From Arenibacter sp. 6A1 (GTDB taxonomy: Bacteria; Bacteroidota; Bacteroidia; Flavobacteriales; Flavobacteriaceae): DNA of 64,000 nt. This document shows positions 10,736-54,001 of the stretch, in pieces (within the stretch, counting starts at the first letter, position 1; the number at the start of each line of letters is the position of its first letter). The notes beneath the pieces were generated by a model that did not search any database, was not told the origin of the DNA, and saw nothing but the letters and a program-made list of their open reading frames with translations. The position numbers and the translations under genes were made by a program. The DNA lies in the NCBI RefSeq assembly GCF_012272855.1, contig NZ_JAAXCQ010000019.1, positions 1 through 64,000 of the forward strand, in the 5' to 3' direction.

Positions 10736-11218
10736 GGGCGTTCCCCTAGCGGGTCAGGCCCTTGGCTATATCCCTTGCGATGCTGCGGGGATGCCGCCGC
10801 GGTCCTTAACGCGACATTCAATAAACAATTATCAAGGAAACAACTTTTTAATGTTACCATTAGAAAATGAGCTCACTTCAATATTTGTACATGGTTATTG
10901 GTGAATATGGGGGTATTGTTATTACCTCGATAACAAGATAACCTTATAACTGAAATCTTTGTTTATTGAAATTGGCTTTCTCTGTTTCAGCACTCCAATT
11001 CATAGTTATACAGTCTATTCTCTCTTCTCTTTTCTTTCTTCCAATTGCTTATTGCTTATTGTACATTGATTTAGCCCCTTACTACAAATGCAAGTCGTTG
11101 CATTTCCAAAGCGGTCCTCTCTTTTCTCTTTTCTCTCTTCTCTCTTCTCTCTTCTCTCTTCTCTTTTATCCAATTGCTAATTCGTCCACTTAAAAAGCGC
11201 TCCCTTAGGGAACGCCCC
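10736..11218. repeat. Composite inverted-repeat element, copy 1 (483 bp)
   Basis: The left end is block A (10736-10812): it begins GGGCGTTCCCC, contains CTTGGCTATATCCCTTGC and GGGGATGCCGCCGCGGTCC, and ends TAACGC. The right end (about 11196-11218) is the same block inverted but cut down to its two tips, AAGCGCTCCCTTAGGGAACGCCC. Inside are block D (10836-10911, around TTAGAAAATGAGCTCACTTC) and block B (11074-11127, GCCCCTTACTACAAATGCAA and GCGGTCCTCTC). Block B runs into a CT microsatellite (about 11106-11165). No coding frame is conserved among copies. Copies 2 and 3 are at 22555-23177 and 53468-54001. The rest of the gap (10537-10735, 11219-11251) shows nothing further. Confidence 0.8.
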
Positions 11219-11251
11219 AAAAATAACCGTACAATTTACAGCTCTTGTTAC

Positions 11252-11291
11252 TACAAAAAAAAAGTCCCGACAACCAGGTTATCGGGACTTT
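11252..11291 (-). terminator. Terminator of the Skp-like gene
   Basis: A perfect 10-bp stem (AAAGTCCCGA at 11261-11270, TCGGGACTTT at 11282-11291) is followed on the minus strand by a run of nine T. It begins 22 bp past the stop of the Skp-like gene. Confidence 0.9.
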
Positions 11292-11313
11292 AGTATTTAG
11301 AAAAAATTACGTT

Positions 11314-11820
11314 TTACTTCTTGTAATTTTCGTTTAATATTTTCACGACCGCATCGGTTACATCATTGGCGTCCGTTCCGTAAAGAACACTACCGCCTTC
11401 GCCCCCGCTCAAAATAAACGAGTATCCGTTTGCTTTTCCGTAGGCCTTGATTTCTCTTTTTACATTGCTTACCAAGCTATCCATTTCTACCTGGCCCTGC
11501 ATTTGTAACTGCTGCTCTTCTTGCTGCAATTGCTGCCCTATTATCTGACTGCGTTGTTGCAACTTTCCGTATTCTTCTTGAGCTTTGGCTTGAGACATTT
11601 TTTCTGCCCTGCCCTGAAAATCCTGTGCCTCTAACTGAAACGCCTGTGAGATACTATCCCTCTTTTTTCCAAAAGCTTCCGACTTCGTTTTAAACCTGGC
11701 TTCGATATCTAATTTCTCCTTATAGGATTCCATCAACTTCACATTATCTACAAAACCTATTTTTTCTTGTTGGCACGATGCGAAACCGATTAGGGCCATT
11801 ACCAAAACTATTTTTTTCAT
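11314..11820 (-). CDS. OmpH/Skp-family lipoprotein
   Basis: A 168-residue OmpH/Skp-like protein. The start is the internal ATG at 11820 (MKKIVLVMALIGFASC): it gives a clean lipoprotein signal with lipobox GFASC, while the longer frame adds an implausible leader that covers the promoter. After Cys-16 comes IGFVDNVKLMESYKEKLD, typical of Skp strand 1. A long Gln/Glu-rich coiled-coil arm follows (about 35-120), then a C-terminal strand (YSFILSGGEGGSVLYG) that closes the trimer body. Skp chaperones hold unfolded outer-membrane proteins in the periplasm; a lipid anchor would tether this one to a membrane. It is monocistronic, with its own promoter and terminator. Confidence 0.85.
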   Translation of the reverse strand: MKKIVLVMALIGFASCQQEKIGFVDNVKLMESYKEKLDIEARFKTKSEAFGKKRDSISQAFQLEAQDFQGRAEKMSQAKAQEEYGKLQQRSQIIGQQLQQEEQQLQMQGQVEMDSLVSNVKREIKAYGKANGYSFILSGGEGGSVLYGTDANDVTDAVVKILNENYKK

Positions 11821-11844
11821 TTTAACTTTATTTATAAATTTTAT

Positions 11845-11852
11845 CAAAAATA
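11845..11852 (-). promoter_or_regulatory. -7 promoter element of the Skp-like gene
   Basis: The minus strand reads TATTTTTG, an exact TAnnTTTG match, 24 bp before the chosen ATG. It supports the internal start, because the longer frame would run across it. No clear -33 element is seen. Confidence 0.45.
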
Positions 11853-12116
11853 GAAAAGGTTTTTTAATAACTGGAAAAATTATTGGCAATCCTTCATCCT
11901 TTTAATTTTTTGGTTGCTGCATTCCAAATGAAGGGCACCCCTCAAAAACAGCCCTGAAACTATTATAACAAAAACCTATGGTAACCCCATGGTTCCATAA
12001 GCCTTAGGTATAAAGATCGGCCTTTTAATACACTTGTTTTAAGCGGAATCTCAATTTTTTAATATTCCTATATCTCCCCTTAGTAGAAAATCGCGCAAAA
12101 GGGCTTAAAATGCGTT

Positions 12117-12944
12117 TTAGCTCCTTTTTAGGACATATATAAGGGAAGAATACTCTTTGGTGCGCATAGCGGACAGATTAGACCAGAGTCCGACCAAAAA
12201 TGCCTTGATCGGGTTTTGTTTTCCCGACTTGTATTTTTCAGAAAGCAAGGAAACATAAAAGGCGTCGAATATCATGGGCTTGGTTTTTACCACTTCCATT
12301 CCTTGGGCAGAAAAAAGTTGCCGTATACTTTGTCTAGAAAAATGCCAAAGGTGTCTGGGCACATCATAGGCCGCCCAATATTTTTTATAGTGGGCCGCAT
12401 CATAGGATTTAAAATTGGGCACGGCGATTACCAAGGTACCGGTCTCGGAAAGGAGCCCGACCAATTGTTGAATCTGTTCTTCCAAGTTGGGCAAATGCTC
12501 CAACACATGCCAAAGGGTGATGAGTTCGTATTTTTTCCCGGGCAACGCCCCTAGCTCGCTATAGAGTGTCAATCCTTTTTCTGCGGCTTTCGCTTTTGCC
12601 AGATCGCTAGGCTCTACTCCGTCTGTCTCCCAGCCGTGTTTTGTTGCCAGGGCCAAAAAATCGCCCGTCCCCGCCCCTACATCCAAGACCGATTTCTTAT
12701 CGCCGGCATAAGAAGTAATGAGGGCAAGCTTGCGATCTAGGTTGTACCCTTTGACGGCCTGGTACATTTTTTCGAACCAATTGTTCTTGGCATCGGTATG
12801 GGAAATATAATCTTGGCTCTCGTAATACTTGGCCAGGTTTTCTGGTTGGGGTTCCGTCACCAGCATGTCCTTTTCCAGATCGTGCATTAATTGAAACTGT
12901 TCTCCCGTTAGGGTATAATCTTCACTGTTTAAATAAAACTTCAT
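12117..12944 (-). CDS. Class I SAM-dependent methyltransferase
   Basis: A 275-residue methyltransferase. Motif I is VLDVGAGTGDFLA (about 90-102), the acidic end of strand 2 is TDGVEPSD, and the motif after strand 4 is LITLWHVLEHLPN. Together these place it in the Methyltransf_11/12/23 superfamily, which often acts on quinone, lipid or polysaccharide precursors; the substrate cannot be told from sequence. The N-terminal 80 residues (YLNSEDYTLTGEQFQLMHD) are a flavobacterial extension containing a short DYISH segment. Its start overlaps the end of the lipoprotein gene by 23 bp, so the two are probably translated from one mRNA. Confidence 0.85.
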   Translation of the reverse strand: MKFYLNSEDYTLTGEQFQLMHDLEKDMLVTEPQPENLAKYYESQDYISHTDAKNNWFEKMYQAVKGYNLDRKLALITSYAGDKKSVLDVGAGTGDFLALATKHGWETDGVEPSDLAKAKAAEKGLTLYSELGALPGKKYELITLWHVLEHLPNLEEQIQQLVGLLSETGTLVIAVPNFKSYDAAHYKKYWAAYDVPRHLWHFSRQSIRQLFSAQGMEVVKTKPMIFDAFYVSLLSEKYKSGKQNPIKAFLVGLWSNLSAMRTKEYSSLIYVLKRS

Positions 12945-13470
12945 GGTTCTGCTGCGTGACTAAATATTCGTTCTTCAGATTACGAAGATACTTTAAAACG
13001 ACAGTTCTTGAAAGCGAATTTTCAAGCAGGCAATCTTCTTCAAAATCGCTGTAGACTTCTATCCCGATATAGTAATTATCCTTCCTAATTTCTTCCGGAT
13101 CCCTTTCTTCCCCCTCTTGGATATTTAGGGCTGCGTTAAAGAAGGAATCGAACAGCAAGGGAAAGAAATTTATATGCTTGGTCGGAATCTGAATTTCATA
13201 AAAGGAAAAGAAATATTGATCTTGAGCAATGGTAAATGGAACGTCGTCCATCACATTTTCGTCCCCTAGTTGAAACTTGGAATTGACAAAATTATAAAAT
13301 GCAGTAGCCTCTTTTGGATCTTGGAATAAAAACAACTGCCGCTTGGGCAAGCCACGTTTAAATTTCTTCCCTTGGCTAATTTTATAGTCTTCTATCCTCG
13401 GGGCAATCCGCAAAGGGATACAGGAAAAACACAGACCCCCTATCAATAAAACTAGCAGTATTCTTTTCAT
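12922..13470 (-). CDS. Predicted lipoprotein, function unknown
   Basis: A 182-residue protein with a lipoprotein signal (MKRILLVLLIGGLCFSC; Cys-17 is the likely lipidation site). The rest is soluble and rich in Phe and charged residues (FKRGLPKRQLFLFQDPKEA, FFPLLFDSFFNAAL), with no domain that I recognise. The 3' end overlaps the methyltransferase start by 23 bp on the same strand, which suggests coupled translation. Envelope location is inferred from the lipobox. Confidence 0.75.
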   Translation of the reverse strand: MKRILLVLLIGGLCFSCIPLRIAPRIEDYKISQGKKFKRGLPKRQLFLFQDPKEATAFYNFVNSKFQLGDENVMDDVPFTIAQDQYFFSFYEIQIPTKHINFFPLLFDSFFNAALNIQEGEERDPEEIRKDNYYIGIEVYSDFEEDCLLENSLSRTVVLKYLRNLKNEYLVTQQNHEVLFKQ

Positions 13471-13676
13471 AGGTAGTTCCTATTTGTTTTTTTATCGGCC
13501 CTATGTCATTCGCATATCCTTGGCCCTGTTTTGGACCGGCTATCGGTCGTGCTCATTTTATAATGGCAGCTTAAAATCGCCCATCAACAAAGAGCGAAAT
13601 ACCCGTTTGAAAAAGGTCGCCATCCCCTCTTCTTCCGCACCGTTTCCAATGGAAATATCCCCACAAAAACCAAGCC

Positions 13677-13718
13677 GTAAAAAAGGGCATTTACTTCCTT
13701 TTAAAAGTAAACACCCTT
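13677..13718 (-). terminator. Terminator downstream of mnmG
   Basis: A 7-bp stem (TTTACTT at 13690-13696, AAGTAAA at 13705-13711) is extended after a 2-by-2 internal loop by AAGGG / CCCTT. On the minus strand it is followed by CCCTTTTTTACGG. It lies about 110 bp past the mnmG stop and beyond the parS-like palindrome. The rest of 13471-13824 shows no gene that I can support. Confidence 0.6.
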
Positions 13719-13776
13719 CTTATTAAAGTGGTCTTATCGGGCTTTAAAAAGCACCGAACACCATATGTTGTTTCAG

Positions 13777-13798
13777 CAATGTTCCACGTGGAACATTG
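13777..13798. promoter_or_regulatory. parS-like palindrome, site 1
   Basis: A perfect 22-bp palindrome whose core is TGTTCCACGTGGAACA (13780-13795), flanked by CAA and TTG. The core differs from the common ParB site TGTTTCACGTGAAACA at two symmetric positions only. It lies 27 bp past the mnmG stop codon. ParB sites spread ParB and recruit SMC near the replication origin; here that role is inferred from sequence, as parA and parB are not in the window. Confidence 0.7.
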
Positions 13799-13824
13799 TA
13801 AAATGCTCTACGCCTCCTTCCTTA

Positions 13825-15693
13825 TTATCGGCCCATAAAGACCAACAAAACGCTGATATCGCTAGGAGATACTCCGCTTATTCTGGACGCCTGTGAAATA
13901 CTCACCGGACGTATGCTCTGCAGTTTTTCGCGCGCTTCGAACGACAGGGACTTAAGTTTGGTGTAATCAAAATCCTCAGGGATTTTGATATTCTCCAAGC
14001 GCTGAAGCTTGTCCGCATTGTTCTTTTCCTTGGCGATATAACCCGAGTATTTTACCTGAATTTCTGCCTGCTCCATCACCTCTCTGTTCAGTTCATTTTC
14101 CTTCACAAAAGAGGATACCGAGTCTAACTGCATCATGTGATCCATGGTTACCCTTGGCCTGGAAAAAACCTTAAATAACTTGTCCGGTTGCTTCACTGTA
14201 GAAGACTCCACACTCTCTAAAATCGGATTTATTTCGTCCGGTTTAAAACTGGTTTCCCTAAAGAAATTCACGAAAGATTCGGATTTTGCCTCCTTCTCCT
14301 CCATTCTTTCCAAGCGTTCTTTAGTGGCCAATCCAATTTCAAAACTCTTTGGTGTTAATCTTAAGTCGGCGTTATCCTGACGTAAAAGGGTACGGTATTC
14401 TGCCCTAGAAGTAAACATTCTATACGGCTCTTCGGTACCTTTTGTAATCAGATCATCTATCAAAACACCAATATACGCCTCGTCTCTTTGTAGCACAAAA
14501 GGATCTTTTTCGTGCACTTTTAGGTGGGCATTTATACCTGCCATCAACCCTTGGGAAGCGGCCTCTTCATATCCTGTGGTACCATTAATCTGTCCCGCAA
14601 AAAACAGGTTCTCTATAGATTTGGTCTCCAGGGTATGCTTCAATTGTGTAGGTGGAAAGTAGTCGTATTCTATGGCGTATCCAGGTCTAAAGAACTTGAC
14701 GTTTTCGAATCCACGAACAGACCTCAATGCTTTAAACTGCACATCTTCGGGCAAGGAAGTAGAGAAGCCGTTTACATAAACTTCCACCGTATTCCATCCC
14801 TCTGGTTCTACAAAAAGCTGATGGCTATCCTTGTCCGCAAAACGGTTGATCTTATCTTCTATAGAAGGACAATATCTAGGCCCTAAACTCTTAATTCTAC
14901 CGTTGAACATAGGGGACCTATCAAAGCCTTCGCGCAACAAATCGTGCACCAAAGCAGAGGTATGCGACATATGGCAATCGCGCTGATGTGTCAGGGCCTT
15001 GGTATCCATATAGGAGAATTTCTCGGGCACAACATCTCCTGGCTGTGGTATCATCACCGAATAATCTAGCGATCTTCCATCTACTCTAGGAGGCGTTCCC
15101 GTCTTCATTCTTCCACTTTCGAACCCTAAAGATGTTAGCTGTTCCGTGATTCCGGTTGCGGCCTTTTCTCCGGCCCTACCCCCGCCAAACTGCTTGTCGC
15201 CAATATGGATAAGCCCGTTTAAGAAGGTACCATTGGTAAGGACAACCGACTTGGATCTTATTCGCAGACCAAGGGAGGTAACCACCCCCGCTACCCGATC
15301 GTTTTCTATGATCAGCCCGGAAACCATATCCTGGTAGAAATCACAATTCGGGGTGTTTTCCAATGCTATTCTCCATTCTTCTGCAAAGCGCATTCTATCG
15401 CTTTGGGCACGTGGACTCCACATGGCAGGCCCTTTGCTTTTGTTCAGCATTTTAAACTGAATGGCACTTTTATCGGTAATAATACCGCTGTAACCGCCCA
15501 GAGCATCGATCTCTCGAACGATCTGTCCTTTGGCAATTCCGCCCATGGCCGGGTTACAGGACATCTGTCCTATATTCTGCAGGTTCATGGTCACCAACAA
15601 GGTGCTAGAACCCATATTCGCAGCAGCTGCCGCCGCCTCGGCTCCGGCATGTCCGCCACCAACTACTATAACGTCGTACTGTGTATCAAACAT
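13825..15693 (-). CDS. mnmG: tRNA modification enzyme MnmG (GidA)
   Basis: A 622-residue FAD protein that works with MnmE to place the 5-carboxymethylaminomethyl group on U34 of certain tRNAs. The FAD-binding motif is VVGGGHAGAEAAAAAA near the N-terminus, followed by NPAMGGIAKGQIVREIDALGG (two parts), TGTPPRVDGRS, and the GTTGYEEAASQGLMAGINA segment that binds FAD. The C-terminal helical domain (MnmE/tRNA contact) is complete, ending RISGVSPSDISVLLVFMGR. It is flanked on both sides by parS-like palindromes. It follows ybeY by 5 bp in an operon with the DUF4175 gene. Confidence 0.97.
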   Translation of the reverse strand: MFDTQYDVIVVGGGHAGAEAAAAAANMGSSTLLVTMNLQNIGQMSCNPAMGGIAKGQIVREIDALGGYSGIITDKSAIQFKMLNKSKGPAMWSPRAQSDRMRFAEEWRIALENTPNCDFYQDMVSGLIIENDRVAGVVTSLGLRIRSKSVVLTNGTFLNGLIHIGDKQFGGGRAGEKAATGITEQLTSLGFESGRMKTGTPPRVDGRSLDYSVMIPQPGDVVPEKFSYMDTKALTHQRDCHMSHTSALVHDLLREGFDRSPMFNGRIKSLGPRYCPSIEDKINRFADKDSHQLFVEPEGWNTVEVYVNGFSTSLPEDVQFKALRSVRGFENVKFFRPGYAIEYDYFPPTQLKHTLETKSIENLFFAGQINGTTGYEEAASQGLMAGINAHLKVHEKDPFVLQRDEAYIGVLIDDLITKGTEEPYRMFTSRAEYRTLLRQDNADLRLTPKSFEIGLATKERLERMEEKEAKSESFVNFFRETSFKPDEINPILESVESSTVKQPDKLFKVFSRPRVTMDHMMQLDSVSSFVKENELNREVMEQAEIQVKYSGYIAKEKNNADKLQRLENIKIPEDFDYTKLKSLSFEAREKLQSIRPVSISQASRISGVSPSDISVLLVFMGR

Positions 15694-15698
15694 AATCT

Positions 15699-16118
15699 CT
15701 AATGTTCCACGTGGAACAATTTAATTTTTTCGTTTTCTTTTTCTCTCATCAAAGCGGCCTCCTGCTCGCTTTTATCCTTATACCCCAAAAGATGCAGCAC
15801 CCCATGGGCCATAACCCTCAACAACTCCTGATCAAAATCGACCCCGTATTCCTTAGCGTTCTCCCGCACCCTTTCCACGGAGATAAAAATGTCCCCAGAA
15901 ATACTGCTGCCCTCGCTGTACTGAAAGGTAATGATATCGGTATAGGTGTCGTGATCTAGATACTCCTGATTAATTTTCAAGAGGTATTCGTCATCGCAAA
16001 AAATGTACTCCAAGGGCCCACAAGAACTGTTTTCCGAAGCCACTATTTGGGTCAACCAATCCGCATATTGCTCCTTGTTAGGGATACTAAACTCGCACTC
16101 GTAATGAAAATCAATCAT
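15699..16118 (-). CDS. ybeY: Endoribonuclease YbeY
   Basis: A 139-residue metal-dependent endoribonuclease that acts in 16S rRNA 3' maturation and ribosome quality control. The signature is AHGVLHLLGYKDK: H105 and H109 match the first two zinc ligands, but the third place, His in E. coli (HGxLHLxGYDH), is Asp-115 here. Asp can bind zinc, so activity is not excluded. The DTYTDIITFQYSEG and GDIFIS strands are typical. The gene start overlaps the DUF4175 gene by 8 bp, and the stop is 5 bp before mnmG. Its last codons form parS-like site 2. Confidence 0.92.
   Translation of the reverse strand: MIDFHYECEFSIPNKEQYADWLTQIVASENSSCGPLEYIFCDDEYLLKINQEYLDHDTYTDIITFQYSEGSSISGDIFISVERVRENAKEYGVDFDQELLRVMAHGVLHLLGYKDKSEQEAALMREKENEKIKLFHVEH
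15703..15718. promoter_or_regulatory. parS-like palindrome, site 2 (inside the 3' end of ybeY)
   Basis: TGTTCCACGTGGAACA again, identical to the core of site 1, 9 bp upstream of the mnmG ATG. On the minus strand it encodes the last residues of YbeY (FHVEH), so the site overlaps coding sequence. Two identical 16-bp palindromes 1.9 kb apart around one gene are very unlikely by chance. Confidence 0.7.
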
Positions 16119-19100
16119 CTGTCTTAAAATATTCCTTTACCTTATTTTGAAAATGTTGCTGCAAAGGTAATGCTTGTCTATTTAAAATTTCTATTTCCTG
16201 ACGATAATTCTCTAGGAATGAGGGTTTGGTAAGTAGCGGATTCTGAAAGCTTTTGGTGTTTGTAGTGCTTTCTCGTTCCTTCTTTTGCCCTTGGCGCTGG
16301 GCAGCATTTTCCATTTTTAGCAGTTCGTAGTTCAATTGCCCCATTTTGTTCATGGTTTTTGGGGTGAGCCCGTTTTCTAAAAGACTGTTCTGAAAATCTT
16401 CCATTTGTTTTAATATTTTCTCCCCTAATTGACGTTCGTCATTATTGATCAGGTCCTTTAATTGCTTTTCAAAAGCCTCACGAATTCGCTGTTGCTCCTT
16501 ATAAATTTCATACAGTTCCCCTAATTGTTCATCGCCCATTTCGCCCGTTCCAGCACCTCCGGGAGGCTTCCCGTTTTTGCCATTTTTACCCTTTTCCTGC
16601 CCTTCTTTTCCATCATTGTTTCCTTTGCCATTTTCCCCAGACCCTCCTTCTTTCTCCGATTCTCCCTTGCCCTGGGTGCCATTTCCCCCGGGCTTTGGAT
16701 TGCTCCCCTGCCCCATTTGAGACATCTTTTCTTTTAATTCTTCCTGACTTTTTATGATATCTGGCAACTGCATATCTCCGGCCCCTTGTCCTTTCCCAGA
16801 GCCAGCTTTCAGATTGTCCTGCATATTATCTAGCATATTCGCCAAGAAATCGGACAAACTATTGGCCGCATTCAACACGTATTTTTGAAAAGAACCCCCT
16901 TCGAACATTTGACTATCGGCCATACTTTCCAATGCCCTATCGGTATTGTAATACACTTCGGTGATTTGTTCGTTCACGAATTCAGCGATTTCCGCCTGTC
17001 TTAAAGAGAGGGCAAAAAGACTATCATCTACATGTACAAACAGTTCCCGTAATTCCTGTTGCTCCTTCAGTTTGCCCATAAAGAAACTACTTTCCCTGTC
17101 CGAGCGTCCCAAACCGTTATACAACAGTTCTTGCTTAAAGGAAAAGGTGATTAGATTGTCCAAGATCTGTCGCAACATTTCGGCATCCTCGGCCAGGGTT
17201 TCGCCTCCGCTTCCCGAGGCAGATTCCTGCATCCCCTTGCTCATTTCCTTCATTTTCTGAGCAGCGGATTGTTGTTTTTTGGTAATCTTGTCTGCAGAAG
17301 AATTGGTAGCATCTGGAGAACTATCAGGTGCTTTGTCCCCTAATTTCTCCAATTCATCCAAGGCTTCTTTCATGTCCTTCTTCACCCCTTCCTCCTTCTC
17401 CTTTTCAAATCCCAAGGGCATCGGTTTTTGTAAACTTTGGTTGTCTTTTTTAAGTTCTTCCATTTCCTTGCTAAGGGCATCGAACTTTTCGTTCAATCTC
17501 TTTTGTCGTTCATCCCTTAGTTTTTCGAACAGTGTTTTTTCGGATAATAGCTGTTGCTCTTCCGCCAATTTTTCCAAATCTTTGGATATTTGTAGTGCCT
17601 TTTCACTTACATAATACCGTTTGGTCAGTTCTAGCAACTGCTCTAAATTACGTTCCCTGTTTTTCTGTTTCTTCCCTAATTCCTCCAAACGCTGGGTAAG
17701 TTCTTCCTTGGAAATCTTATCGGCAATTTTCTTAAGCTCTTCCAGTAGTTTTTCATTTTTCTGAGCCTCCTTTTCTTGACGTTCCAAACGCTCCTGTAAC
17801 AATTTATTTAACTTGGCATCCCGCCCTGCTTTCTCCAGGTTATCCTTTAATTCCTTGCTAAATTTTTGCATTAAATTTTCCTGTTCTTCCTGCTTCCGAA
17901 GAAAATCTCGAACCTTGTTTTTATCATTAAACCCAAGCTGACTTTTTTCTTTTTGTTCCTTCTCCATTTCTTTTAGGGCAGCATCTTGTTGTTTAAAGTT
18001 ATCCAAGGTATGATCCATTTTATCAATAATATCTTGCCGTACTGCCAATGCCCTATTCTGTAACTCACTACTATCTAGTACTTTCATTCTAAAGACTTGA
18101 CTCTTAGCAGTTTTACCACCGTGTAGCTGATCATTATCTTTAACTTCAAAATAAAAAGAATACAATTCCCCCTCTTTTAAGCTCAAACCAGCCGGAAAAG
18201 TGTAGTAAAACTGCTCATAATTCTTATTTGGTTTACCCAATTCTAACCGTTGTTGGGCATCTTTATTGGTATCTGGATAGCAAACCAAGCTGAGACTACT
18301 AATTTTATAATCATCGGTAGATTCTCCTATATAGTACCGGATATTTGGTTGCAAGGAATCGAGCACTTCCTTTACTTTTATCCTTGGAAAAGCATCTTTG
18401 AGCACTGAAAACCGAAAGCCAAGAGATTCATAATACCGAACGTTCTCATTAGAGGTGACCACCTCATAATCCATATCGGAATAGACCTTTTTTGCATAGC
18501 TGAATACTTTTCCGTTTTTGTTAAAAGCAACAGTACTATCGGCTGTCCTTAAGTTAATCCGCTCGGTATTTTCTCCACGGATAGCCCATTTTACCTCGGT
18601 CCCTTCAGGAAAAGTCGCATTTCCCGTGCTCAGCAAAGTGTCGTTGCGCTTCTCCAAATATCTAGGATATTGCAAGACCATCCTAAAGTCTTCTATAGAG
18701 GGCACCTTTAATACCTTTAGTTGGTATTCTTGCGATTTTATACCATTTGCTTTAAAGTAAAAATCAAGGCTTTCAAAAGGAGGCGTCATCACATATTTAA
18801 AAACATCCTTTTCCTTTTGCAGCACCACTTCCCTATTTCCCATAACCAAGGATACATTTTCTGGTTTTATATTTCCAACCGTCGTAACCGATAAAATATA
18901 CTCTTTGGTTTCATAGACTTCCAGGCTATCGGATAACAGCCTAAACTCAAAAGGTGCTGGAGGTGCATAGGCCATGTCGTAATTGACTACGCGTTTATAA
19001 GAATCAAAATAGGAAACAATATCCCCAGACACCCACATCAACAACAAAAGAACAAAGGGTACCAAAAGGTATTTAGCATTTTTAAAACTATCTTTAATCT

Positions 19101-19533: not shown

Positions 19534-19742
19534 AACAATAATTATTTTACACCAAGTTACAGCATAGTACAAAGATTTACATCAAAATACTGTTAAAAAG
19601 CAGCTATTCGCAGCTAGATAGAAGCTAAGGCGAGCATCCCTTTTTTTACTCTCTCTAAAAAACAATCGATTTTTGTTCCTAGCACCACTCCTTCCCTACC
19701 CTTTTAAAAAACCACAACATACCGAGTATATCTTGTATCCTC

Positions 19743-19773
19743 TTTGGGAGTTACGGGGCTTGCACTATCTTTG
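19743..19773 (+). promoter_or_regulatory. Promoter of gltX
   Basis: TTTG (19743-19746), 19 bp spacer, TATCTTTG (19766-19773): a full match to the Bacteroidota sigma factor consensus (TTTG-N19-TAnnTTTG). The gltX ATG is 18 bp downstream. This is the cleanest promoter in the window and shows that the in-frame TTG at 19744 is not the start codon. Confidence 0.85.
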
Positions 19774-19791
19774 CGTACAAAATTAAAGTCT

Positions 19792-21303: not shown

Positions 21304-21336
21304 TAACAGGCAAAAGAAACTTTAATACTTTTATAT

Positions 21337-22554: not shown

Positions 22555-23177
22555 GGGCGTTCCCTCCTCCGTCGGGCGGGCTCTTCGCTGTATCCCTTGC
22601 CATGCAGCGGGGATGCCGCTGCGATCCCTAACGCAGGAACCAGTCAACCCTAATCAGGGAAGTCCATGATCAATGTGAAATGAAACAATTTTTCAATGTA
22701 ACCATTAGAAAATGAGCTCACTTCAATATTTGCACATGGCCATTGGTGAATTTGGGGCCTTTGTTTAAAGGTAGCACCCCCGATTACCGATCCCCTATTT
22801 TAAACCTTGCTTATTGCTAATTGAAAATGACTGCAGCCAAGGCCAACGCGCCAGCTGGCCCCTTACTACAAATCCAAATTGTTGAATTTTCCGTGCGGTC
22901 CTCTCTTTTCTCTTCGCTCTTTTCTTTTATCTAATATCTAATTGGTTATTGTTCACTGTATTTACAGCTTGCCCTTTTGTTGAACTACTCTGATTAGTGT
23001 TTACCATTTTTAAGCATGAACTTCCCTGATTAGTGTTGCCCGCATTTAAGCATTGTTTATTGCTAATTGGTTATTGTTAATTGAAAAAGCGTTAGGGATT
23101 GTAGCGGCATCCTTTTTTAGGAGGCAGGGCCTTTTAAAAAAGATATAGCGGAAATACCGACCCATAGGGGAACGCCC
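22555..23177. repeat. Composite inverted-repeat element, copy 2 (623 bp, most complete)
   Basis: Block A forward (22555-22634) and block A inverted (23089-23177) form the ends; the outermost bases are CTT-GGGCGTTCCC and GGGAACGCCC-AAG. Between them lie repeat C (22643-22667), block D (22682-22757), block B (22857-22910, with a CT-rich tail), and two inverted C copies (22984-23004 and 23015-23040). Short AT-rich words (TTATTGCTAATTG, TTGGTTATTGTT) separate them. No open frame of useful length is shared with the other copies. The element fills most of the gap between the SPFH terminator and the DUF6327 gene. Confidence 0.82.
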
Positions 23178-46500: not shown

Positions 46501-49500
46501 CAACCTTTACCGTATCGGCCCCAGGAACCTATACCGTAACCGTAAAAGATGGCAACGGGTGTACCGCTACCGATACTATTGATATTCTTGCTCCTTTAAC
46601 TGCAACGGCAGTGGCCGCAGTCCAGCCTTCTTGTGACAATAATGATGGGGAGATATCCGTGACCGCCAATGGTGGATCGGGGAACTACGAATACGAACTA
46701 CAAGATGGTTTAGGAGCTACCTTAGTAGCCCAAGGCCCTTCCAATACCTTTACAAACTTAAGTGCAGGGGATTATACAGTAGTGGTGCACGATATTGCTT
46801 CCTCTTGTGAAAGCAGTACCAAAATCACCTTGGAAACACCTAGCCTGGTAGTGTTTACATATACTAAAGAAGACGTCTCCTGTAACGGAGGTACCGATGG
46901 TTCTATAGAAATTATCTTGGATGCTTCCAATGATAATCCGCCATACACCTTTACCATGGACGATGGGATTAATCCGCCATTCACACAAAACAGTAATATG
47001 TTTACTGGATTAAGTGCCGGTACTTATGACATTACCGTTACTTCGGATAGAGGCTGTGCTTATACGGAATCCATTATCATTGATGAAAATCCGGTCCTAA
47101 CCGCTACGGCTACGGCTACTGATTTTGCCTGTGCCGCAGATAATAGCGTGTCTACGGCTAGTATTACCGTTACTGCCGCAGGAGGCACCGGTACCTATAC
47201 CTATAGCATCGATGGAACCAATTTCCAAACCAGCAATACCTTTACAGTATCCGATACCAAAGCCGTTCAGAACTTTACAATTACCGTGAAGGACAACAAC
47301 GGTTGTACAGAGACCACCAATGTGAGCGTTGATCCATTACCTAGGATTACGGATGTGACCGTGGCACAACAGACTGCCATCACTTGTAACAACGATGAGG
47401 TGGCACGGGTAACGGTGACCGGAGGATCGGGCGACTTTACTTTTGAATTGTTGCCAGGTGGTCCATCGCAGAATTTGACCAGCCAAACGGCCGACTTTAA
47501 CCTTAGCGTTCCGGGAGATTATACTTTTAGGGTAACCGATAATGTGACCGGCTGTTATTTTACTACGGCTCCTTATACCGTTGCTCCTTTTAACACTATT
47601 AAAGTAACCGCTTCCGCTACGCAAGCAGTAAGTTGTTTTGGAGGAAATGACGGCGCTATGGAGATTAACCTAAGCGGATATACTGGCAACTATAGCTATG
47701 AGGTATTCAGAAGCAACAACACCTCAACGGGAATCACCAATACAGGGGTTGCCCCAGGTATATTGACCATTCCGAATATGAGTGCCGGTAATTATTATGT
47801 AGAAATTACCGCTACCGACACTCCGTTCTGTGATACTGTTTCTAATACTGTGACCATTGCATCTCCGGCTGCAACCTTAAATCTGGTAGCGACTAAAAAT
47901 ATCAACGCCAATTGTACTATTGGAGCACAAGTAACAGTAAAAGCAAGTGGTGGAACGCCAGCCTATACCTATGCCTTTGTACAGGACGGTATGGCCCCGG
48001 TATTAGCGAACTATACCGCTAGCGCTAGTGCTGTCTTAGATCCTGCTACAAACCTTAACTGGGATGTGTGGGTAAAAGATGCTAATGGATGTACCTTTAT
48101 GATCGATGTGGTTGTTGCAGAAGATTCTATGCCTACCGTAACGGCTCCAGCCTTTGCTGCAGATCAGTGTACCTCTGGCGGCAATTCCTATAGCTTTACC
48201 GTTGCAGGAACAGGTGTAGCTCCGCTACAATACAGTATTGGCACCGGATACCAGACTAGCAATACCTTTACCGTATCGGCCCCGGGAACCTATACCATAA
48301 CCGTTAGGGATGCCAATGGATGTACCGCTACCGATACAATCGATATTCTTGCTCCTTTAACTGCAACGGCAGTGGCCGCAGTCCAGCCTTCTTGTGACAA
48401 TAATGATGGGGAGATATCCGTGACTGCCAATGGTGGATCGGGGAACTACGAATACGAACTACGAGATGGTTTAGGAGCTACCTTAGTAGCCCAAAATTCT
48501 TCCAATGCCTTTACAAACCTAAGTGCAGGGGATTATACAGTGGTGATCCATGATACCGCTTCAGGATGTAACAGCACTACCGATATTTCTTTAGAGGCTG
48601 CCACCCCGGTAAGCTTCACATGGAACAAAGAAAACGTATCCTGTAACGGAGGTACCGATGGTTCTATCGAAATTATCTTGGATGCTTCCAATGATAACCC
48701 GCCCTACACCTATACAATTTTTGATGGTACAACCACTACCACCCAAAACAGTAATCTGTTCAACGGATTGACTGCGGGCAATTATGATATTACCGTAAGA
48801 TCTGATAGAGGGTGTGTGCTTACAGAAAGAATTATAATTACAGAGCCATTACCGCTTTCCATGACTACTAGTCAAACCGATTTTAGCTGTAATGCCGACA
48901 ATTCAGTATCTCAGGTAACGATTACGGCAAGCGCGAATAACGGAACCGCTCCTTATTTCTATAGCATTGATGGTATCAATTTCTTTGCTACCAATAGCTT
49001 TAAGATAAAAGATACCGGAATGGTCCAAAATATTACCCTATCGGTAAAAGACCAAAACGGTTGTATGGTCACAGAGAGTTTAACGGTTAATCCATTGCCA
49101 AAAATTACGGCAGTAGACGTTGCCCAAATCACTGCAATAAGCTGTACTAATGCTGAAACAGTTCGTTTGACGGTTACTGGAGGATCGGGCGACTTTACAT
49201 ATGAACTGTTACCTAACGGTCCGTCGCAGAATGTGGTGAGCCAAACGGCCGACTTTGATCTAACGACCCCAGGGACCTATGTTTTCCGAATCACCGATAA
49301 TAGTACTGGCTGTACCTTTACCACGGCTCCTTATGAGATAGAAGCTTATGATACCATCGATGTGTTGGCCACGGCCACAACACCAGTAAGTTGTTATGGT
49401 GGTAATGACGGTGCCCTAGAAATAAATATTAGCGGTTATTTCGGTGCCTATTCTTATGAGGTCTATACGACTGCAGGTATTCAAATAGTAGCGGCAACGG

Positions 49501-51866
49501 CTGCCAATACCAGTACGAATCCGTTAACCATCGGTGGTATCCCGGCAGGAAATTATAGGGTGATCATTACGGCTACAGAGACTCCTTTCTGTACCACCAC
49601 ATCCAATACGGTCACTATTGCATCGCCAAACAGAGCCTTAGCAATATCGACCAATATTTCGGCGCACTTAACCTGTACCGAGCTTGGTGAAATTACGGCC
49701 AATGCCAACGGGGGATGGGCCAATTATACCTATGCTATTGCGCAGGGAACAGCGCCAGTGGCCTCCGATTTTACTACAAATAATGTGTTTAGCGGACTAT
49801 CGGCAGGCACCTATGAAATCTATGTCAGGGATCTAAACGGCTGTGAAGTATTTAGGACAGAGACCTTGGTACAACCAGCCCCTATTACTGCCACGGCCAC
49901 GGTAAATGCCAACAATTTATGTACAGGCGATTTCGCTGGCTCTATTACCGCCAATGTTTCTGGAGGAGGAAGACCGGCCATAGATGCTACGGCCACTTAT
50001 AATTATATCCTCAACTATTTGGACATGGGGTCCTCCTCTGCTCCACAGTTGACAAATACCTTTACTAATTTGCCCGCCGGTAACTATTCTGTTACGGTAA
50101 CCGATGGTTGGAACTGTGATGTTACCACTTTAGCGGTACTCATTAGCGAACCGGCAAAAGTAAGGGCTTCCCTTGCCATCACCAATGTAAACAGCTGTAC
50201 GGTAGGTGCAGACCTTAGGTTGACGGCAACAGGAGGAACAGCTCCTTATAGCTACAGCACAACCGCTTCTGGAGTATTTACCCCAATGGCCGGAAATTCC
50301 GTAAATATTACAAATCAAGCCGTTGGTTCGTACCAATACTTTATAAAAGATGCTAACGGATGTGTTTCTACAATTTCAAATAAAGTGACCATAGATGCCA
50401 TTCCTAGCTTGCAAATTAAAGCAAGCTCCGTAGTCGATGTAAGTTGTTTTGAAGAGACTACCGGTGTAATACAGGTAAAGGCCATTGGAGGTTTGGGCAG
50501 TTATACGTACTCCCTATTGGCTCAAGACCAATTGACGGTTGTAAGAGGTCCGCAAACCAATACCATCTTTAATAATTTGGCCGCAGGCACTTACTATATC
50601 CAAGTAGACAGCAAGGATTGTACAGATAGGGTACAAGTGGCTATTAGCGAAGGAAATCCTTTGACCACCAACACCCCTATTGTAACCAATCCTATGTGTG
50701 ACGATGGTTATGGAAGTATTGAAGTAGGTTTAACGGGCGGAACCGGCGTGTACCAATATGCCATATCCCCAAATTTAAACCAGTTCGATACTAAAAATAA
50801 ATTCACTGATCTGGCACCGGGATCTTATACGGTCATTGCCCAAGATTCCAAAGGTTGTAAACCATTTGTCTTCAATTTCGATATTGTGGCGCCCCAACCA
50901 TTAGAAATGAGCGCAACTGCGGTAGCCCCAGAACTATGTGTAGGCAGTGAAGACGGTTCTATTACGGTTAACATCCAAGGTGGTACGGCCCCATACAGAA
51001 CCAGTATCAATTCTATGTCAGAAAGCGACTTCGTGGTGGGCAGAACCCAGTTTAGCAATTTGGCCAGCGGTACCTATGCCATCCTTGTTAGGGATGCTCA
51101 GGGATGCGAGACCAATATAGCGGTGACCATAGAAGCAGGCGTAAATTTAAATGCAGCCATCACCCCTTCTTATGGATGTGAGGACAACGGTCCTACTAAC
51201 GCTATTTCCTTGATGTTAGAGGACCCAAGCGTTGCTCCTGAGGTTATGTATGCCCTAGACTCCACAGATCCGGCAGACATGGTCCTAGAGCCTAATTTTG
51301 CCAACATGACCCCAGGGAAGCACTATATAGCCATAGCCCATAGCAATGGATGTATACAAACGATCGATTTTGAAATAGACCAGATAGATCCTTTGACACT
51401 CGCGTTGGAACAAAAGACCATCAACCAAATTACGGCCAGCGCCAGTGGTGGATACCCAGAATACACTTACCTGTTCAACGGTAAGGAAAGTAGTAGCGGA
51501 AACACCTTCTACATAAGGGAAACAGGGACTTATACGGTGACGGTGATCGATGATAACGGTTGCGAAACCTCTGCCGATATCTTTATGGAATTCATTGATA
51601 TTGAAATCCCGAATTTCTTTTCGCCAAATGGCGATGGCCAAAACGATTTCTGGGCACCGAGGAATTTAGAAGGCTTCCCAAAAATACTAACAGTAGTATT
51701 TGACCGTTATGGTAGGAAGGTTTACCGAATGGGTGCCAATGATAAAGGTTGGGACGGACTTTATAAAAATACCGAACTGCCATCAGGAGATTACTGGTAT
51801 ATCATTAAACTCAAGGGAGAAAATGACGATAGAGAGTTTGTAGGCCATTTTACCCTGTATAGATAA
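31551..51866 (+). CDS. sprB: SprB-like giant gliding adhesin (6771 aa)
   Basis: One unbroken frame of 6771 codons, similar in size to F. johnsoniae SprB (about 6500 aa). A signal peptide (about 1-24) precedes an N-terminal region (25-375) containing [13 protein letters not shown] and [13 protein letters not shown], then a DUF11-like domain (about 377-545, [21 protein letters not shown]). Dozens of SprB-type repeats of about 70-85 residues follow, each with a Cys early (e.g. VSCNGGNDG), a YTYSIDG-like strand and a G-x-Y-x-V/I-x-V-x-D-x-x-GC end. The last 88 residues (from [16 protein letters not shown]) are the T9SS type B signal. In gliding Flavobacteria SprB filaments move along the cell surface on a helical track and give adhesion and thrust. 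Two regions consist of very long, nearly identical units, listed separately. sprF follows after 21 bp. Confidence 0.93.
35766..40928 (+). repeat. Array 1 inside sprB: three units of about 1.72 kb
   Basis: Units begin near 35766, 37491 and 39213 (spacing 1725 and 1722 bp, about 575 codons). Each starts PTV-T/S-LAATT-N/D-LCY and carries [20 protein letters not shown], then the [13 protein letters not shown] module and several more SprB repeats. DNA identity is high across long stretches, including silent positions. A fourth, clearly diverged unit starts near 40929. The pattern indicates recent duplication or gene conversion of multi-domain blocks, not only old single-domain repeats. Confidence 0.88.
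43841..49121 (+). repeat. Array 2 inside sprB: three units of about 1.76 kb
   Basis: The anchor ACAACAAACTGCCAT recurs at 43841, 45602 and 47366 (one base changed) and in diverged form near 49122: spacings 1761, 1764 and about 1757 bp (about 587 codons). The encoded anchor is [20 protein letters not shown]. Each unit also holds a [11 protein letters not shown] repeat, a CFGxNDGAM repeat and a [19 protein letters not shown] repeat. The units starting at 45602 and 47366 are almost identical. Similarity extends left of the first anchor to about 43330. Confidence 0.88.
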
Positions 51867-51887
51867 AGAATTTAATTTTCAAGACTA

Positions 51888-52838
51888 ATGATCAAAAGAG
51901 TAATACCCCTGATGTTTCTTTTAAGTATCCTAATCTCATCAGGACAGGAACTTAATTCGCCCCAACTGTCGCAATATTTAGCGGACAACCCCTTTGTGCT
52001 CTCCCCTACCTATGCCGGAATTGGCGATCATATAAAGATCCGAATAAATGGCCTGGCACAATGGGTAGGGATTAAAGATGCCCCAAGGACCCAATCTTTT
52101 GCGGGCGATATGAGGCTTGGGGAAAAATCTGGGGTAGGACTCTTTTTATACAACGATTCTAACGGTTATACCAAACAAAAGGGAGCCCGACTTTCTTTTG
52201 CACACCATTTGACCCTAGACCGGTACGAGGACGAATTTTTATCCCTTGGTGTCTCCTATAATTTTAACCAGTTTAGGATAGATATAGAAAAATTTACCGA
52301 TGCCGGCTTCGATGCCGCAGTAACCAATGATAGGGCTACCAACAACCACAATTTTGATATAGGAGTCCTTTATCGCAAAAACAACTTTTATTTTAGCCTC
52401 AATGCCTCTAACCTTATCAATAAGGACATCGACCTCTTCGATCCCATTTATGAACCAAATGGACTCAGGAACTATTATGCCTATACCGGATATCGTTATA
52501 GAGAATCCAAGGCCAGTAATTTAGAAATAGAACCTTCCATACTCTATAAGCTTTTTGAGAGCGATGGTAGGTCCGAAGCAGATTTAAACGTGAAATTCAG
52601 ATGGTACGATTTTCAAGATTATTACTATGCCGGTCTAAGCTATCGGTTTTTGAACGACCAGATAGGAAAACCACACTATGTGGCCCCTCTGGTAGGCCTT
52701 AAAAAAAACAATTTCTACTTTGGTTACTCCTATCAAATTATTTTAAACGAAATTTTAGGATATAGCACCGGAACCCACGTTATTACCATCGGTGTAGATT
52801 TATTCCAAGGTATTAGCAACTGTAGGTGTACTTATTAA
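51888..52838 (+). CDS. sprF: SprF-like PorP/SprF family outer-membrane protein
   Basis: A 316-residue PorP/SprF family protein. A signal peptide (about 1-20, ending ISSGQ) is followed by the family entry LNSPQLSQYLADNPFVLSPTYAGIG, then antiparallel strands (VGLFLYNDSNGYTKQKGARL, YAGLSYRFLNDQ) and a C-terminal strand. SprF is needed in F. johnsoniae to deliver SprB to the surface; family members are shuttle or anchoring proteins paired with type B cargo. It starts 21 bp after the sprB stop on the same strand. It lacks the long C-terminal extension of the upstream SprD-like protein. Confidence 0.9.
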   Translation: MIKRVIPLMFLLSILISSGQELNSPQLSQYLADNPFVLSPTYAGIGDHIKIRINGLAQWVGIKDAPRTQSFAGDMRLGEKSGVGLFLYNDSNGYTKQKGARLSFAHHLTLDRYEDEFLSLGVSYNFNQFRIDIEKFTDAGFDAAVTNDRATNNHNFDIGVLYRKNNFYFSLNASNLINKDIDLFDPIYEPNGLRNYYAYTGYRYRESKASNLEIEPSILYKLFESDGRSEADLNVKFRWYDFQDYYYAGLSYRFLNDQIGKPHYVAPLVGLKKNNFYFGYSYQIILNEILGYSTGTHVITIGVDLFQGISNCRCTY

Positions 52839-52909
52839 GAGCAGCTAATAACAAGTCTAGCCTATTTTAAATTAGCGCATTTTATGACCCACAACTAAAA
52901 GGATTGCAG

Positions 52910-52917
52910 TAAGTTTG
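52910..52917 (+). promoter_or_regulatory. -7 promoter element of folB
   Basis: TAAGTTTG is an exact TAnnTTTG match, 17 bp before the GTG start of folB. No -33 TTTG at normal spacing is visible. Confidence 0.45.
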
Positions 52918-52934
52918 TAAAAATTTTTTGTAAC

Positions 52935-53291
52935 GTGGGAAAGGTAGAAGTTAGTAATATAAGGGTATATGCCCATCATGGCTGTTTAAAGGAAGAAACT
53001 ATAATAGGGAGCGATTACCGTGTTGATGTTGCCGTTAAGGCCTCGCTAAAAAAGGCTTCGAAATCTGATGAACTGGTACACACGGTCGATTATGTGCTGA
53101 TCAACCATATTGTAAAGGAAGAAATGAAAGTCCCTTCCAAACTTTTAGAACATGTGGCCGAAAGAATCATAAAAAGAATTTTCAAGGAAAGTAAGATGGT
53201 AACGAGGGCCAAAGTAGCTGTTACCAAGATAAATCCGCCTATCGGAGGCGATGTTGCCGAGGTTACGGTAACAATAAAATCTAAAAGATAG
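52935..53291 (+). CDS. folB: Dihydroneopterin aldolase
   Basis: A 118-residue FolB that converts dihydroneopterin to 6-hydroxymethyl-dihydropterin and glycolaldehyde in folate synthesis. Visible signatures are VSNIRVYAHHGCLKEE near the start (the family's Y-x-x-HG), TVDYVLINHIVKEE, LLEHVAERI and the end AVTKINPPIGGDVAEVTVTI. The start codon is GTG at 52935; no ATG upstream is in frame and relatives begin MGKVxVxNIRVYAHHGC. The tRNA-Cys gene follows with its own promoter. The folB and tRNA-Cys pair next to glnS is, from memory, a usual Flavobacteriaceae order, with the spr genes lying between. Confidence 0.93.
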   Translation: MGKVEVSNIRVYAHHGCLKEETIIGSDYRVDVAVKASLKKASKSDELVHTVDYVLINHIVKEEMKVPSKLLEHVAERIIKRIFKESKMVTRAKVAVTKINPPIGGDVAEVTVTIKSKR

Positions 53292-53303
53292 TGATTTTAA
53301 GTT

Positions 53304-53332
53304 TTTGATAGTTAAAAAAATTATTACATTTG
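53304..53332 (+). promoter_or_regulatory. Promoter of tRNA-Cys
   Basis: TTTG (53304-53307), 17 bp spacer, TACATTTG (53325-53332), 11 bp before the tRNA 5' end. It matches the Bacteroidota consensus with slightly short spacing. Confidence 0.75.
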
Positions 53333-53343
53333 CAGAACGAAAG

Positions 53344-53414
53344 GGCATTGTGGCCGAGTGGCTAGGCAGAGCTCTGCAAAAGCTTGTACAGCGGTTCGAA
53401 TCCGCTCGATGCCT
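53344..53414 (+). tRNA. tRNA-Cys (anticodon GCA)
   Basis: A full cloverleaf is visible. Acceptor GGCATTG (53344-53350) pairs with CGATGCC (53407-53413) with one G-U. D-stem GCC/GGC (53353-53355, 53365-53367). Anticodon stem GAGCT/AGCTT around loop CTGCAAA, so the anticodon is GCA at 53376-53378. T-stem AGCGG/CCGCT with loop TTCGAAT. The discriminator is T at 53414, as in tRNA-Cys. CCA is not encoded. Confidence 0.96.
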
Positions 53415-53418
53415 CTCT

Positions 53419-53452
53419 AAAACCTTAACTTTAATTAGTTAAGGTTTTTTTT
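53419..53452 (+). terminator. Terminator of tRNA-Cys
   Basis: A perfect 12-bp stem (AAAACCTTAACT at 53419-53430, AGTTAAGGTTTT at 53437-53448) with a 6-base loop leads into a T run. It starts 4 bp after the tRNA. Confidence 0.93.
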
Positions 53453-53467
53453 ATGCCTTTATTTTAT

Positions 53468-54001
53468 GGGCGTTCCCCTATCGGGTCGCTCTTTCCGCTA
53501 TATCTTTTTTAAACGCCTGCACCGTCCAAAAAAGGATGCCGCTGCAAAAGCTAACGCGACAATCAATGAACAATAATCAATTTGGCAATAAACAATGTTA
53601 AATGCGGGCAACACTAATCAGGGAAGTTCACTGGATAAAAGAAAAGAGAAAAGAGAGGACCGCTCGGAAAATGCAACCACTTGCATTTGTAGTAAGGGGC
53701 CAAATCAATTTCCTATAAGCAGTAGACAATGCTTAAATGAGGGCAACACTAATCAACCAAGTACATGATATTTGTTAGGAAGTTATTTTTGTTATCGATT
53801 ATGATGGATGAAGGGTGGGTTCAGTGAACTTTAACCAATCGGTACATTTTCACATTGCTACATTAAACAATTGCATTTTTCACATTGTTAATTACTAATT
53901 GTTTATTGTTCACTGAAAAAAGCGTTAGGGACCGCGGCGGCATCCCCGCAGCGCAGCAAGGGATATAGCCAAGGGCCCGCCCGACGAAGGAGGGAACGCC
54001 C
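53468..54001. repeat. Composite inverted-repeat element, copy 3 (534 bp)
   Basis: Block A forward (53468-53557, a variant with CTATATCTTTTTTAAACGCC and AAAAAAGGATGCCGCTGC) and block A inverted (53922-54001) form the ends. Inside are repeat C (53608-53630), block B in the opposite orientation to copies 1 and 2 (53641-53700), and a second C copy (53743-53767). Block D is missing. The region 53768-53921 is AT-rich, with TTACTAATTGTTTATTGTTC just inside the right end. The two end blocks differ more from each other than each does from an end in another copy, so ends may be exchanged between copies. Confidence 0.8.

What the first reader, a model, noticed from the sequence alone, without database searches (positions are those of the whole stretch)
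10736..54001. Three copies of a 0.48-0.62 kb composite element bounded by inverted repeats of about 80-90 bp
Seen: at 10736-11218, 22555-23177 and 53468-54001, the same block A stands at both ends in opposite orientation, starting GGGCGTTCCC and ending GGGAACGCCC. Between the ends are shared modules B, C and D in variable order and orientation. Block A tips can also pair with each other (GCGTT with AACGC), so each end could fold alone. The right end of copy 1 is reduced to its two tips, as expected after a hairpin deletion. All copies lie outside genes, next to terminators. This resembles a MITE-like or REP-like non-autonomous element, possibly mobilised by a transposase elsewhere, or a structured RNA family. 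I do not know a described element with this layout.
Basis: partly seen in the sequence, partly recalled or inferred. Interest (0 to 1): 0.85.

Follow-up and report, generated by a model that had tools for sequence, protein, structure and literature searches.

The report
Paired Flavo-1 hairpin repeats in Arenibacter
The repeated block is a larger, folded form of a known but unexplained Bacteroidota motif (Flavo-1), present about 200 times in this Arenibacter genome and often set as two different copies facing each other, an arrangement that looks like the paired intergenic repeats of E. coli more than like a jumping composite element.

Summary
Block A is Rfam Flavo-1 (RF01705) plus a basal stem (GCGTT/AACGC) and a side hairpin that the Rfam model leaves out. 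It has two subfamilies, A1 (80 nt) and A2 (88-95 nt). The Arenibacter genome holds 209 exact GGGCGTTCCC tips against 2 reversed. In a capped list of 150 units plus 4 added, 15 pairs lie within 1 kb: all join A1 to A2, 14 with tips outward. Of 90 units none lies in an ORF of 100 aa or more; convergent gaps are favoured. Covariation across orders supports the fold. In 97 kb aligned with A. nanhaiticus both genomes hold units at the same 5 sites; units are 95% identical, flanks about 63-79%. Interiors are unrelated in 2 of 4 compared pairs, partly shared in one, shared in one. Module B also occurs alone; C, D and E were seen only with units. Sixteen other Arenibacter lack the copy-2 unit. The C58 RAYT array in this genome has another repeat. 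Best reading: a BIME-like system of paired DNA structures, spread once and now static. The dispersing enzyme and function are unknown.

The parts
10736..10812 (+). unit A1 (77 nt), left end of copy 1; outer tip GGGCGTTCCC, inner tip AACGC
   Evidence: 71.5 bits
10813..11196 (.). interior of copy 1 (repeat modules; unrelated to the interior at the same place in G009)
11071..11116 (-). module B, a dispersed repeat that also occurs alone
11197..11217 (-). remnant of a second unit, tips only; full A2 in the sister genome
22555..22634 (+). unit A1 (80 nt), left end of copy 2
   Evidence: 74.8 bits
22635..23088 (.). interior of copy 2 (unrelated to that of G009)
22856..22900 (-). module B
23089..23177 (-). 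unit A2 (89 nt), right end of copy 2; Flavo-1 at 40.4 bits (below the gathering score of 42)
   Evidence: 80.5 bits
53468..53557 (+). unit A2 (90 nt), left end of copy 3; Rfam Flavo-1 match 53480-53565 on the minus strand, 44.9 bits
   Evidence: 84.9 bits
53558..53921 (.). interior of copy 3; 91% like 298 nt of the interior of the pair at contig position 79132-79752
53658..53703 (+). module B
53922..54001 (-). unit A1 (80 nt), right end of copy 3
   Evidence: 71.1 bits

Best explanation
A BIME-like system of intergenic DNA repeats. Each block is one unit of a Bacteroidota family whose single strand folds into a three-way junction: basal stem P1 (GCGTT/AACGC), a variable side hairpin P2, and a long hairpin P3 with fixed internal loops, whose inner part is the Rfam motif Flavo-1. 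In the ancestor of this Arenibacter species and A. nanhaiticus, two subfamilies (A1, A2) were amplified to about 200 copies by an unidentified trans-acting machine (inferred). Copies settled between genes, above all between convergent genes, often as one A1 and one A2 with GGGCG tips outward. They hardly move now but are kept in sequence and fold (conservation shown; selection inferred, gene conversion not excluded), while the DNA between two paired units turns over in part of the pairs. I think the paired units act at the DNA level, as binding or folding sites at the ends of transcription units, as BIMEs do in E. coli (inferred; weakest step).
For: Family: Rfam RF01705 match; 209 tips. Fold: A1 98.3% and A2 98.7% of cells paired, covariation score above all 500 shuffles; alignment of 24 units from two orders 92.3% paired against 79.1% shuffled, 15 of 25 pairs with changes on both sides, slid controls at most 51.2%. 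P1 around the core in 15 of 20 loci (20 of 114 matches) of three other Flavobacteriaceae genomes, 0 of 20 in control stretches. Pairing: 15 pairs within 1 kb, 15 of 15 A1+A2, 14 of 15 tips outward; on the capped top-150 list alone 12 pairs, 11 tips outward (p 2e-6), these 11 of 11 A1+A2 (p 1e-4). Context: 37 of 75 in convergent gaps against 41 of 253 gaps (p 2e-8). No transcript-relative orientation: solo units in tandem gaps 12 against 15. Insertion: no unit in the orthologous copy-2 gap of 16 of 16 other Arenibacter. Static: in 97 kb of blocks aligned with G009 the same 5 sites in both and no private unit; 9 of 9 sites in long G009 stretches occupied. Kept: positions 11-74 of A1 94.8% identical between species, outer 20 nt 75%, inner 20 nt 63%, ungapped (n 21).
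Against: No protein was shown to bind or move the units. No target-site duplication could be shown. For 14 of 22 A1 loci at least one non-orthologous G009 copy is as close as the ortholog, so gene conversion may explain part of the similarity. The number of further pair types is not above shuffles in any of the three alignments, and P1 never varies. P1 was absent in 9 of 9 top family hits looked at. Pairing is not general in Flavo-1: in three other genomes one neighbour within 1 kb among 114 matches (A1-like partners would escape the Rfam model). One pair has tips inward (C5), and the rule fades beyond 1 kb. In one of four pairs the interior is kept with the ends, and modules C, D and E were seen only with units. 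The 16 empty relatives are 61-81% identical around the gap, so loss in them cannot be excluded. Flavo-1 lies before sufS-like genes in several genera (by reading), which could mean an RNA role.
Confidence: 0.45

Rival explanations
1. Structured RNA elements: each unit acts in a transcript (3' UTR stabiliser, attenuator, terminator or small RNA), as the Rfam entry supposes.
For: Covarying fold; Rfam lists it as sRNA; a place before sufS-like genes in several genera (by reading); A2 and some A1 copies have a T-tract on the inner side, so termination of transcripts entering from outside is possible for these.
Against: Solo units in tandem gaps show no orientation bias, 12 against 15. A published transcriptome of Flavobacterium psychrophilum found Flavo-1 hits indistinctly sense or antisense to transcribed regions, and many outside them (PMC9723704, passages read). 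The consensus flanks of A1 carry no U-tract after the hairpin on either strand.
Confidence: 0.25
2. MITE or other non-autonomous composite transposon bounded by A and A', moved by a transposase elsewhere.
For: Inverted ends; lineage-specific insertion at copy 2; copy 3 shares 298 nt of interior at 91% with the pair at contig position 79132; modules C, D and E seen only with units; 209 tips here and 197 in G009 against 2-19 in 16 other Arenibacter, several of them no higher than their reversed controls.
Against: Interiors unrelated between species in 2 of 4 compared pairs with shared ends; module B also alone; no private unit in 97 kb of aligned blocks; most listed units are solitary; ends are two subfamilies, each palindromic; no duplication found.
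Confidence: 0.15
3. REP elements of a RAYT (TnpA-REP) system.
For: Paired inverted palindromic intergenic repeats; RAYT genes in the genome; Flavo-1 presence goes with RAYT presence among 397 family genomes (odds 2.7, p 3e-6; at 5 or more matches odds 1.7, p 0.014); Bacteroidetes RAYT subclass 2.6 is reported with atypical structures (PMC6006769, passages).
Against: The C58 RAYT sits among its own repeat GGCACGAGCGTGACCCTCGCGCTAGCG. G009 has 197 tips but no RAYT over the cut-off. No association for genomes with 9 or more Flavo-1 matches (p 0.52; counts saturate at 11). No Flavo-1 or R1 hit beside 4 of 4 RAYT genes fetched from other genomes. No GT[AG]G foot.
Confidence: 0.1

Closest known systems
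Flavo-1 RNA motif (Rfam RF01705)
   Same: A2 matches the covariance model; same P3 hairpin and internal loops; present in 236 of 397 family genomes searched.
   Different: The Rfam model covers P3 and is typed as an sRNA gene. Here the unit has P1 and P2 too, two subfamilies, no strand preference, and inverted A1/A2 pairs. Two A1 units scored 31.8 and 34.7 bits, below the threshold.
BIMEs / REP doublets (REPINs) of E. coli and others
   Same: Two subfamilies of imperfect palindromes in inverted pairs, intergenic, variable filler between (REP and BIME facts partly from PMC6006769 passages, partly recalled).
   Different: Units are 77-95 nt three-way junctions, not 21-65 nt hairpins; no GT[AG]G foot; pair gaps of 85 to 966 bp; no cognate RAYT found.
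MITEs
   Same: Short, repeated, inverted ends, no coding capacity.
   Different: Ends belong to two subfamilies, no target duplication shown, no mobility seen between sister species, interior not always inherited with the ends.

Membership tests
Flavo-1 (RF01705) | score at or above 42 bits with the Rfam model | tested here: met
   A2 at 53480-53565, 44.9 bits; 49 of 68 listed matches in the genome over the cut-off. Not met by the A1 units of the window nor by the A2 of copy 2, 40.4 bits.
Flavo-1 (RF01705) | acts as an RNA | not testable with these tools
   no transcript data; orientation is not biased relative to genes
REP / RAYT system | GT[AG]G tetranucleotide at the foot of a 21-65 nt hairpin (PMC6006769) | tested here: not met
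   unit is 77-95 nt with GGGCGTT/AACGC base; A1 flank consensus TAGnATAnTAATTT
REP / RAYT system | cognate units flank the RAYT gene | tested here: not met
   C58 RAYT flanked by another repeat; no unit beside the C30 RAYT within the locus; one unit of a third kind lies at the far end of the C58 array; one decayed RAYT copy lies on the inner side of an A2 but carries its own repeat
BIME | two subfamilies alternating in inverted orientation | tested here: met
   15 of 15 close pairs A1+A2, 14 of 15 tips outward
BIME | built of REP units, bound by gyrase, IHF or Pol I | not testable with these tools
   no binding data; the REP foot is absent
MITE | target-site duplication and empty sites | tested here: inconclusive
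   16 of 16 relatives lack the copy-2 unit, but at 61-81% identity no exact boundary or duplication can be read
MITE | ends and interior move together | tested here: inconclusive
   of 4 pairs compared with G009: interiors unrelated in 2, partly shared in 1, shared in 1

The most novel reading that the evidence does not exclude
Flavo-1 is not an RNA gene but the core of a Bacteroidota-wide DNA site that folds into a three-way junction, and in Arenibacter two versions of it work as a matched, oriented pair of boundary elements at convergent gene ends and at rRNA operons, kept by selection while the DNA between them can turn over.
Probability: 0.2. Interest if true: 0.8.

Novelty: new variant of a known kind. 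Interest (0 to 1): 0.55.

Why it matters
Flavo-1 was described in 2010 as a probable RNA (PMC2864571, table seen) and a 2021 transcriptome paper found no real clue to its function (PMC9723704). Showing that it is a fragment of a larger three-way-junction unit, without strand preference here, static between two species, conserved, and able to form matched inverted pairs points to a DNA-level role and gives concrete tests. It would also be a BIME-like system outside the REP/RAYT family.

Tried and rejected
Composite transposon as the only reading: interiors do not always travel with ends and module B occurs alone. RAYT as mover: not supported for this genome's RAYTs. IS200-like gene about 0.5 kb from an A2 at C11:318 kb: no second unit beside it, left open. 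Integron attC: tips run GTT...AAC, the reverse of attC; the attC layout is recalled, not looked up. Intrinsic terminator: A1 consensus flanks lack a U-tract, but A2 and some A1 copies have inner T-tracts, so this is not excluded for those. Promoter in the conserved outer flank TAGnATAnTAATTT: resembles but does not fit TAnnTTTG (PMC9723704); untested. Gene-3'-end oriented element: not supported by tandem gaps, 12 against 15. Exchange of interiors between loci: the G009 interiors of copies 1 and 2 have no match longer than 97 nt in the part of the G000 genome held.

Errors caught: one search used a P1 register off by one and was repeated; marks C11:61531 as different only because its flanks were trimmed (present); one search lists one false tip in coding DNA (L045), not counted among the pairs.

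Literature looked for: searches. None of the listings showed a paper on paired Flavo-1 units or on repeats of this kind in Arenibacter. Read as passages only: PMC9723704, PMC2864571, PMC6006769, PMC12306157; all others as listings only.
Full report
What is there. The three places hold five full units and one remnant. Each unit starts GGGCGTTCCC at its outer end and stops at AACGC at its inner end. There are two subfamilies. A1 is 80 nt (77 in copy 1) with a GC-rich upper stem; A2 is 88-95 nt with a TTTTTT/AAAAAA upper stem and a variable top. The Rfam scan names the A2 of copy 3 as Flavo-1, RF01705, 44.9 bits.

Organism. The genome search calls G009 the same genus as the window genome. G009's contig lengths 303549, 104151 and 136180 equal those of Arenibacter nanhaiticus CGMCC 1.8863 records. 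The window genome is therefore taken as an Arenibacter; its species was not shown.

Copy number. GGGCGTTCCC occurs 209 times, against 2 for the same letters reversed. G009 has 197 and 16 other Arenibacter have 2-19; in several of these the reversed control is about as high, for example 10 against 9 in G012 and 2 against 3 in G013.

Fold. The common structure is P1 (GCGTT/AACGC), a side hairpin P2, and a long P3 with internal loops. Pair counts: A2 98.7% of cells paired against 95.9% shuffled; A1 98.3% against 96.5%. Within each subfamily few pairs vary: 2 of 26 (A2) and 3 of 24 (A1) have changes on both sides, which shuffles reach in 500 and 31 of 500. The stronger test is the mixed alignment of A1, A2, three other Flavobacteriaceae genomes and Marinifilum: 92.3% paired against 79.1% shuffled, 15 of 25 pairs changed on both sides (0 of 500 shuffles), no slid register above 51.2%. 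The number of further pair types is not above shuffles in any of the three. P1 never varies there, so it is supported by conservation and not by covariation.

Beyond Arenibacter. In 20 Flavo-1 loci (of 114 matches) of three other genomes, 15 have GCGTT and AACGC around the core; the stretch where P2 should be folds with negative energy in 12 of these 15, in 7 at -13 kcal/mol or lower. 0 of 20 control stretches have both tips. In 9 of the 10 top family hits looked at (L120 left out) P1 was absent in all 9, so P1 is not universal in Flavo-1. With R1, 29 of 198 genomes drawn across the phylum match (stricter filters). Marinifilum is in the order Marinilabiliales, Arenibacter in Flavobacteriales.

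Pairs. Merging the capped list with four units known from other calls (three of them complete known pairs, the fourth is the A1 of copy 1) gives 15 neighbours within 1 kb: 14 with tips outward and one with tips inward, all 15 A1+A2. Copy 1 is not among them because its right end is a remnant. Without the four added units there are 12 pairs, 11 tips outward (binomial p 2e-6 against one quarter), and these 11 are all A1+A2 (p 1e-4 against 44%). Random placement gives 5.2 pairs on average and at most 14 in 2000 trials, so the number alone is only moderately high. Between 1 and 3 kb there are 8 more neighbours, of which 5 have tips outward and 2 are A1+A2: the rule fades with distance. In three other genomes one pair of neighbours within 1 kb is found among 114 Flavo-1 matches, with tips outward.

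Place. Ninety units from the loci in hand were typed for context: none in an ORF of at least 100 aa, 37 convergent, 33 tandem, 5 divergent, 15 at a locus edge. Background gaps of contigs C10 and C11: 41 convergent, 164 tandem, 48 divergent. Convergent excess p 2e-8. These 90 are not a random draw: most came from ranked or contig-ordered search lists, and the ORF caller was a simple one. Solo units in tandem gaps face the upstream gene 12 times and away 15 times.

rRNA operons. Seven contig ends that share the 16S leader carry an A2 whose inner end faces the operon. These ends were picked because a unit lay near them, so the share is not known. On the 5S side three picked ends carry a unit; two ends seen without such choice (C30 start, C32 end) do not. 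The 16S and 5S assignments are by reading, with one Rfam match to 16S and none to 5S.

History. In 16 other Arenibacter the gap that holds copy 2 is 30 bp or less beyond the alignable ends in 10, 51-109 bp in 3 and 238-551 bp in 3, and none holds a unit. In G000 the same stretch is about 790 bp. Against G009, five aligned blocks (97 kb of C10 and C11) hold units at the same 5 sites in both genomes and no private unit; two of the blocks were chosen for synteny with the window, three lie in stretches chosen around G009 tips. In all long G009 stretches 9 of 9 G000 sites are occupied. Adding loci that were fetched because they hold a unit gives 22 of 23 with the same orientation, a figure biased towards occupied; at the one exception (L023) G009 shows the opposite orientation in a much longer gap.

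Interiors. Four pairs could be compared with G009. Copies 1 and 2 have unrelated interiors (only 20-29 nt matches), the pair at C10:79132 shares 142 nt at 79% with a large length difference, and the pair at C23:306959 shares 249 nt at 84%. Of 24 module hits in 478 kb, B (18) lies 4 times inside a pair, 5 times on the inner side of a unit and 9 times far from any; C, D and E (2 each) lie only inside pairs or on the inner side; none lies on the outer side; module S gave no hit. Two hairpin losses are visible: A2 of copy 1 in G000 and A2 of copy 2 in G009.

Conservation. For 21 A1 orthologs, positions 11-74 are 94.8% identical (tips left out because exact tips were used to find them). The outer 20 nt are 75% and the inner 20 nt 63% without gaps, or 79% and 71% over 30 nt with gaps for 24 units; the region around is about 90%. 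Changes gather in the apical loop (columns 47-49) and in columns such as 28 and 70, which covary. One orthologous A2 pair (L029) shows a compensatory change in the top stem. Orthologs are on average closer (95.7%) than other copies (91.2%), but in 14 of 22 loci some other G009 copy is at least as close, so conversion is not excluded.

Mover. The genome has four Y1_Tnp matches; of three proteins scanned two are RAYTs and one is IS200-like. The C58 RAYT sits in its own 147-bp repeat array with a different palindrome. G009 has only two weak RAYT matches. Over 397 family genomes RAYT and Flavo-1 presence go together (125 both, 111 Flavo-1 only, 47 RAYT only, 114 neither; p 3e-6) but not for genomes with 9 or more Flavo-1 matches (p 0.52; counts saturate at 11). 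I therefore do not name a mover.

Reading. The parts and their fold are shown. That the units spread in the ancestor of two species and then stopped is supported by a modest number of compared sites. That they work as DNA rather than RNA rests on absent strand bias and on one published remark (PMC9723704). That pairs act as boundaries is inference by analogy to BIMEs.

Noticed in passing
G000 contig ends C59, C56, C32, C8, C30, C31, C29 (16S side); C7, C46, C23 (5S side): Units lie at rRNA operons with their inner ends facing the operon. The ends were picked because a unit was near; two unpicked 5S-side ends (C30, C32) have none.
   Followed up: partly
window 11071-11116, 22856-22900, 53658-53703; C11:326924-343814: Module B is a dispersed imperfect palindrome, 21 hits in 478 kb at a loose threshold, eleven of them on the same strand within 17 kb of C11 near two similar 204-aa ORFs.
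   Followed up: partly
L134:4280-7760 (C58:246.3-249.8 kb): A tandemly duplicated RAYT gene within 147-bp repeats carrying their own palindrome; a third kind of unit closes the array.
   Followed up: partly
C58:256108-256883 (L024): A decayed RAYT copy with its own repeats lies on the inner side of an A2 unit.
   Followed up: partly
L122, L123, L128, L129: In several Flavobacteriaceae genera a Flavo-1 copy sits directly before a sufS-like gene (by reading of the start of the gene; no search made).
   Followed up: no
L232, L242, L246, L257, L271: Marinifilum carries single units with the same 27-nt outer arm as Arenibacter A1 but another core.
   Followed up: partly
L139:27-106: Group II intron domain match at the end of a small contig.
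   Followed up: no
outer flank of A1 in G000 and G009: Conserved AT-rich flank TAGnATAnTAATTT before GGGCG in both genomes; target preference or promoter, unresolved.
   Followed up: partly
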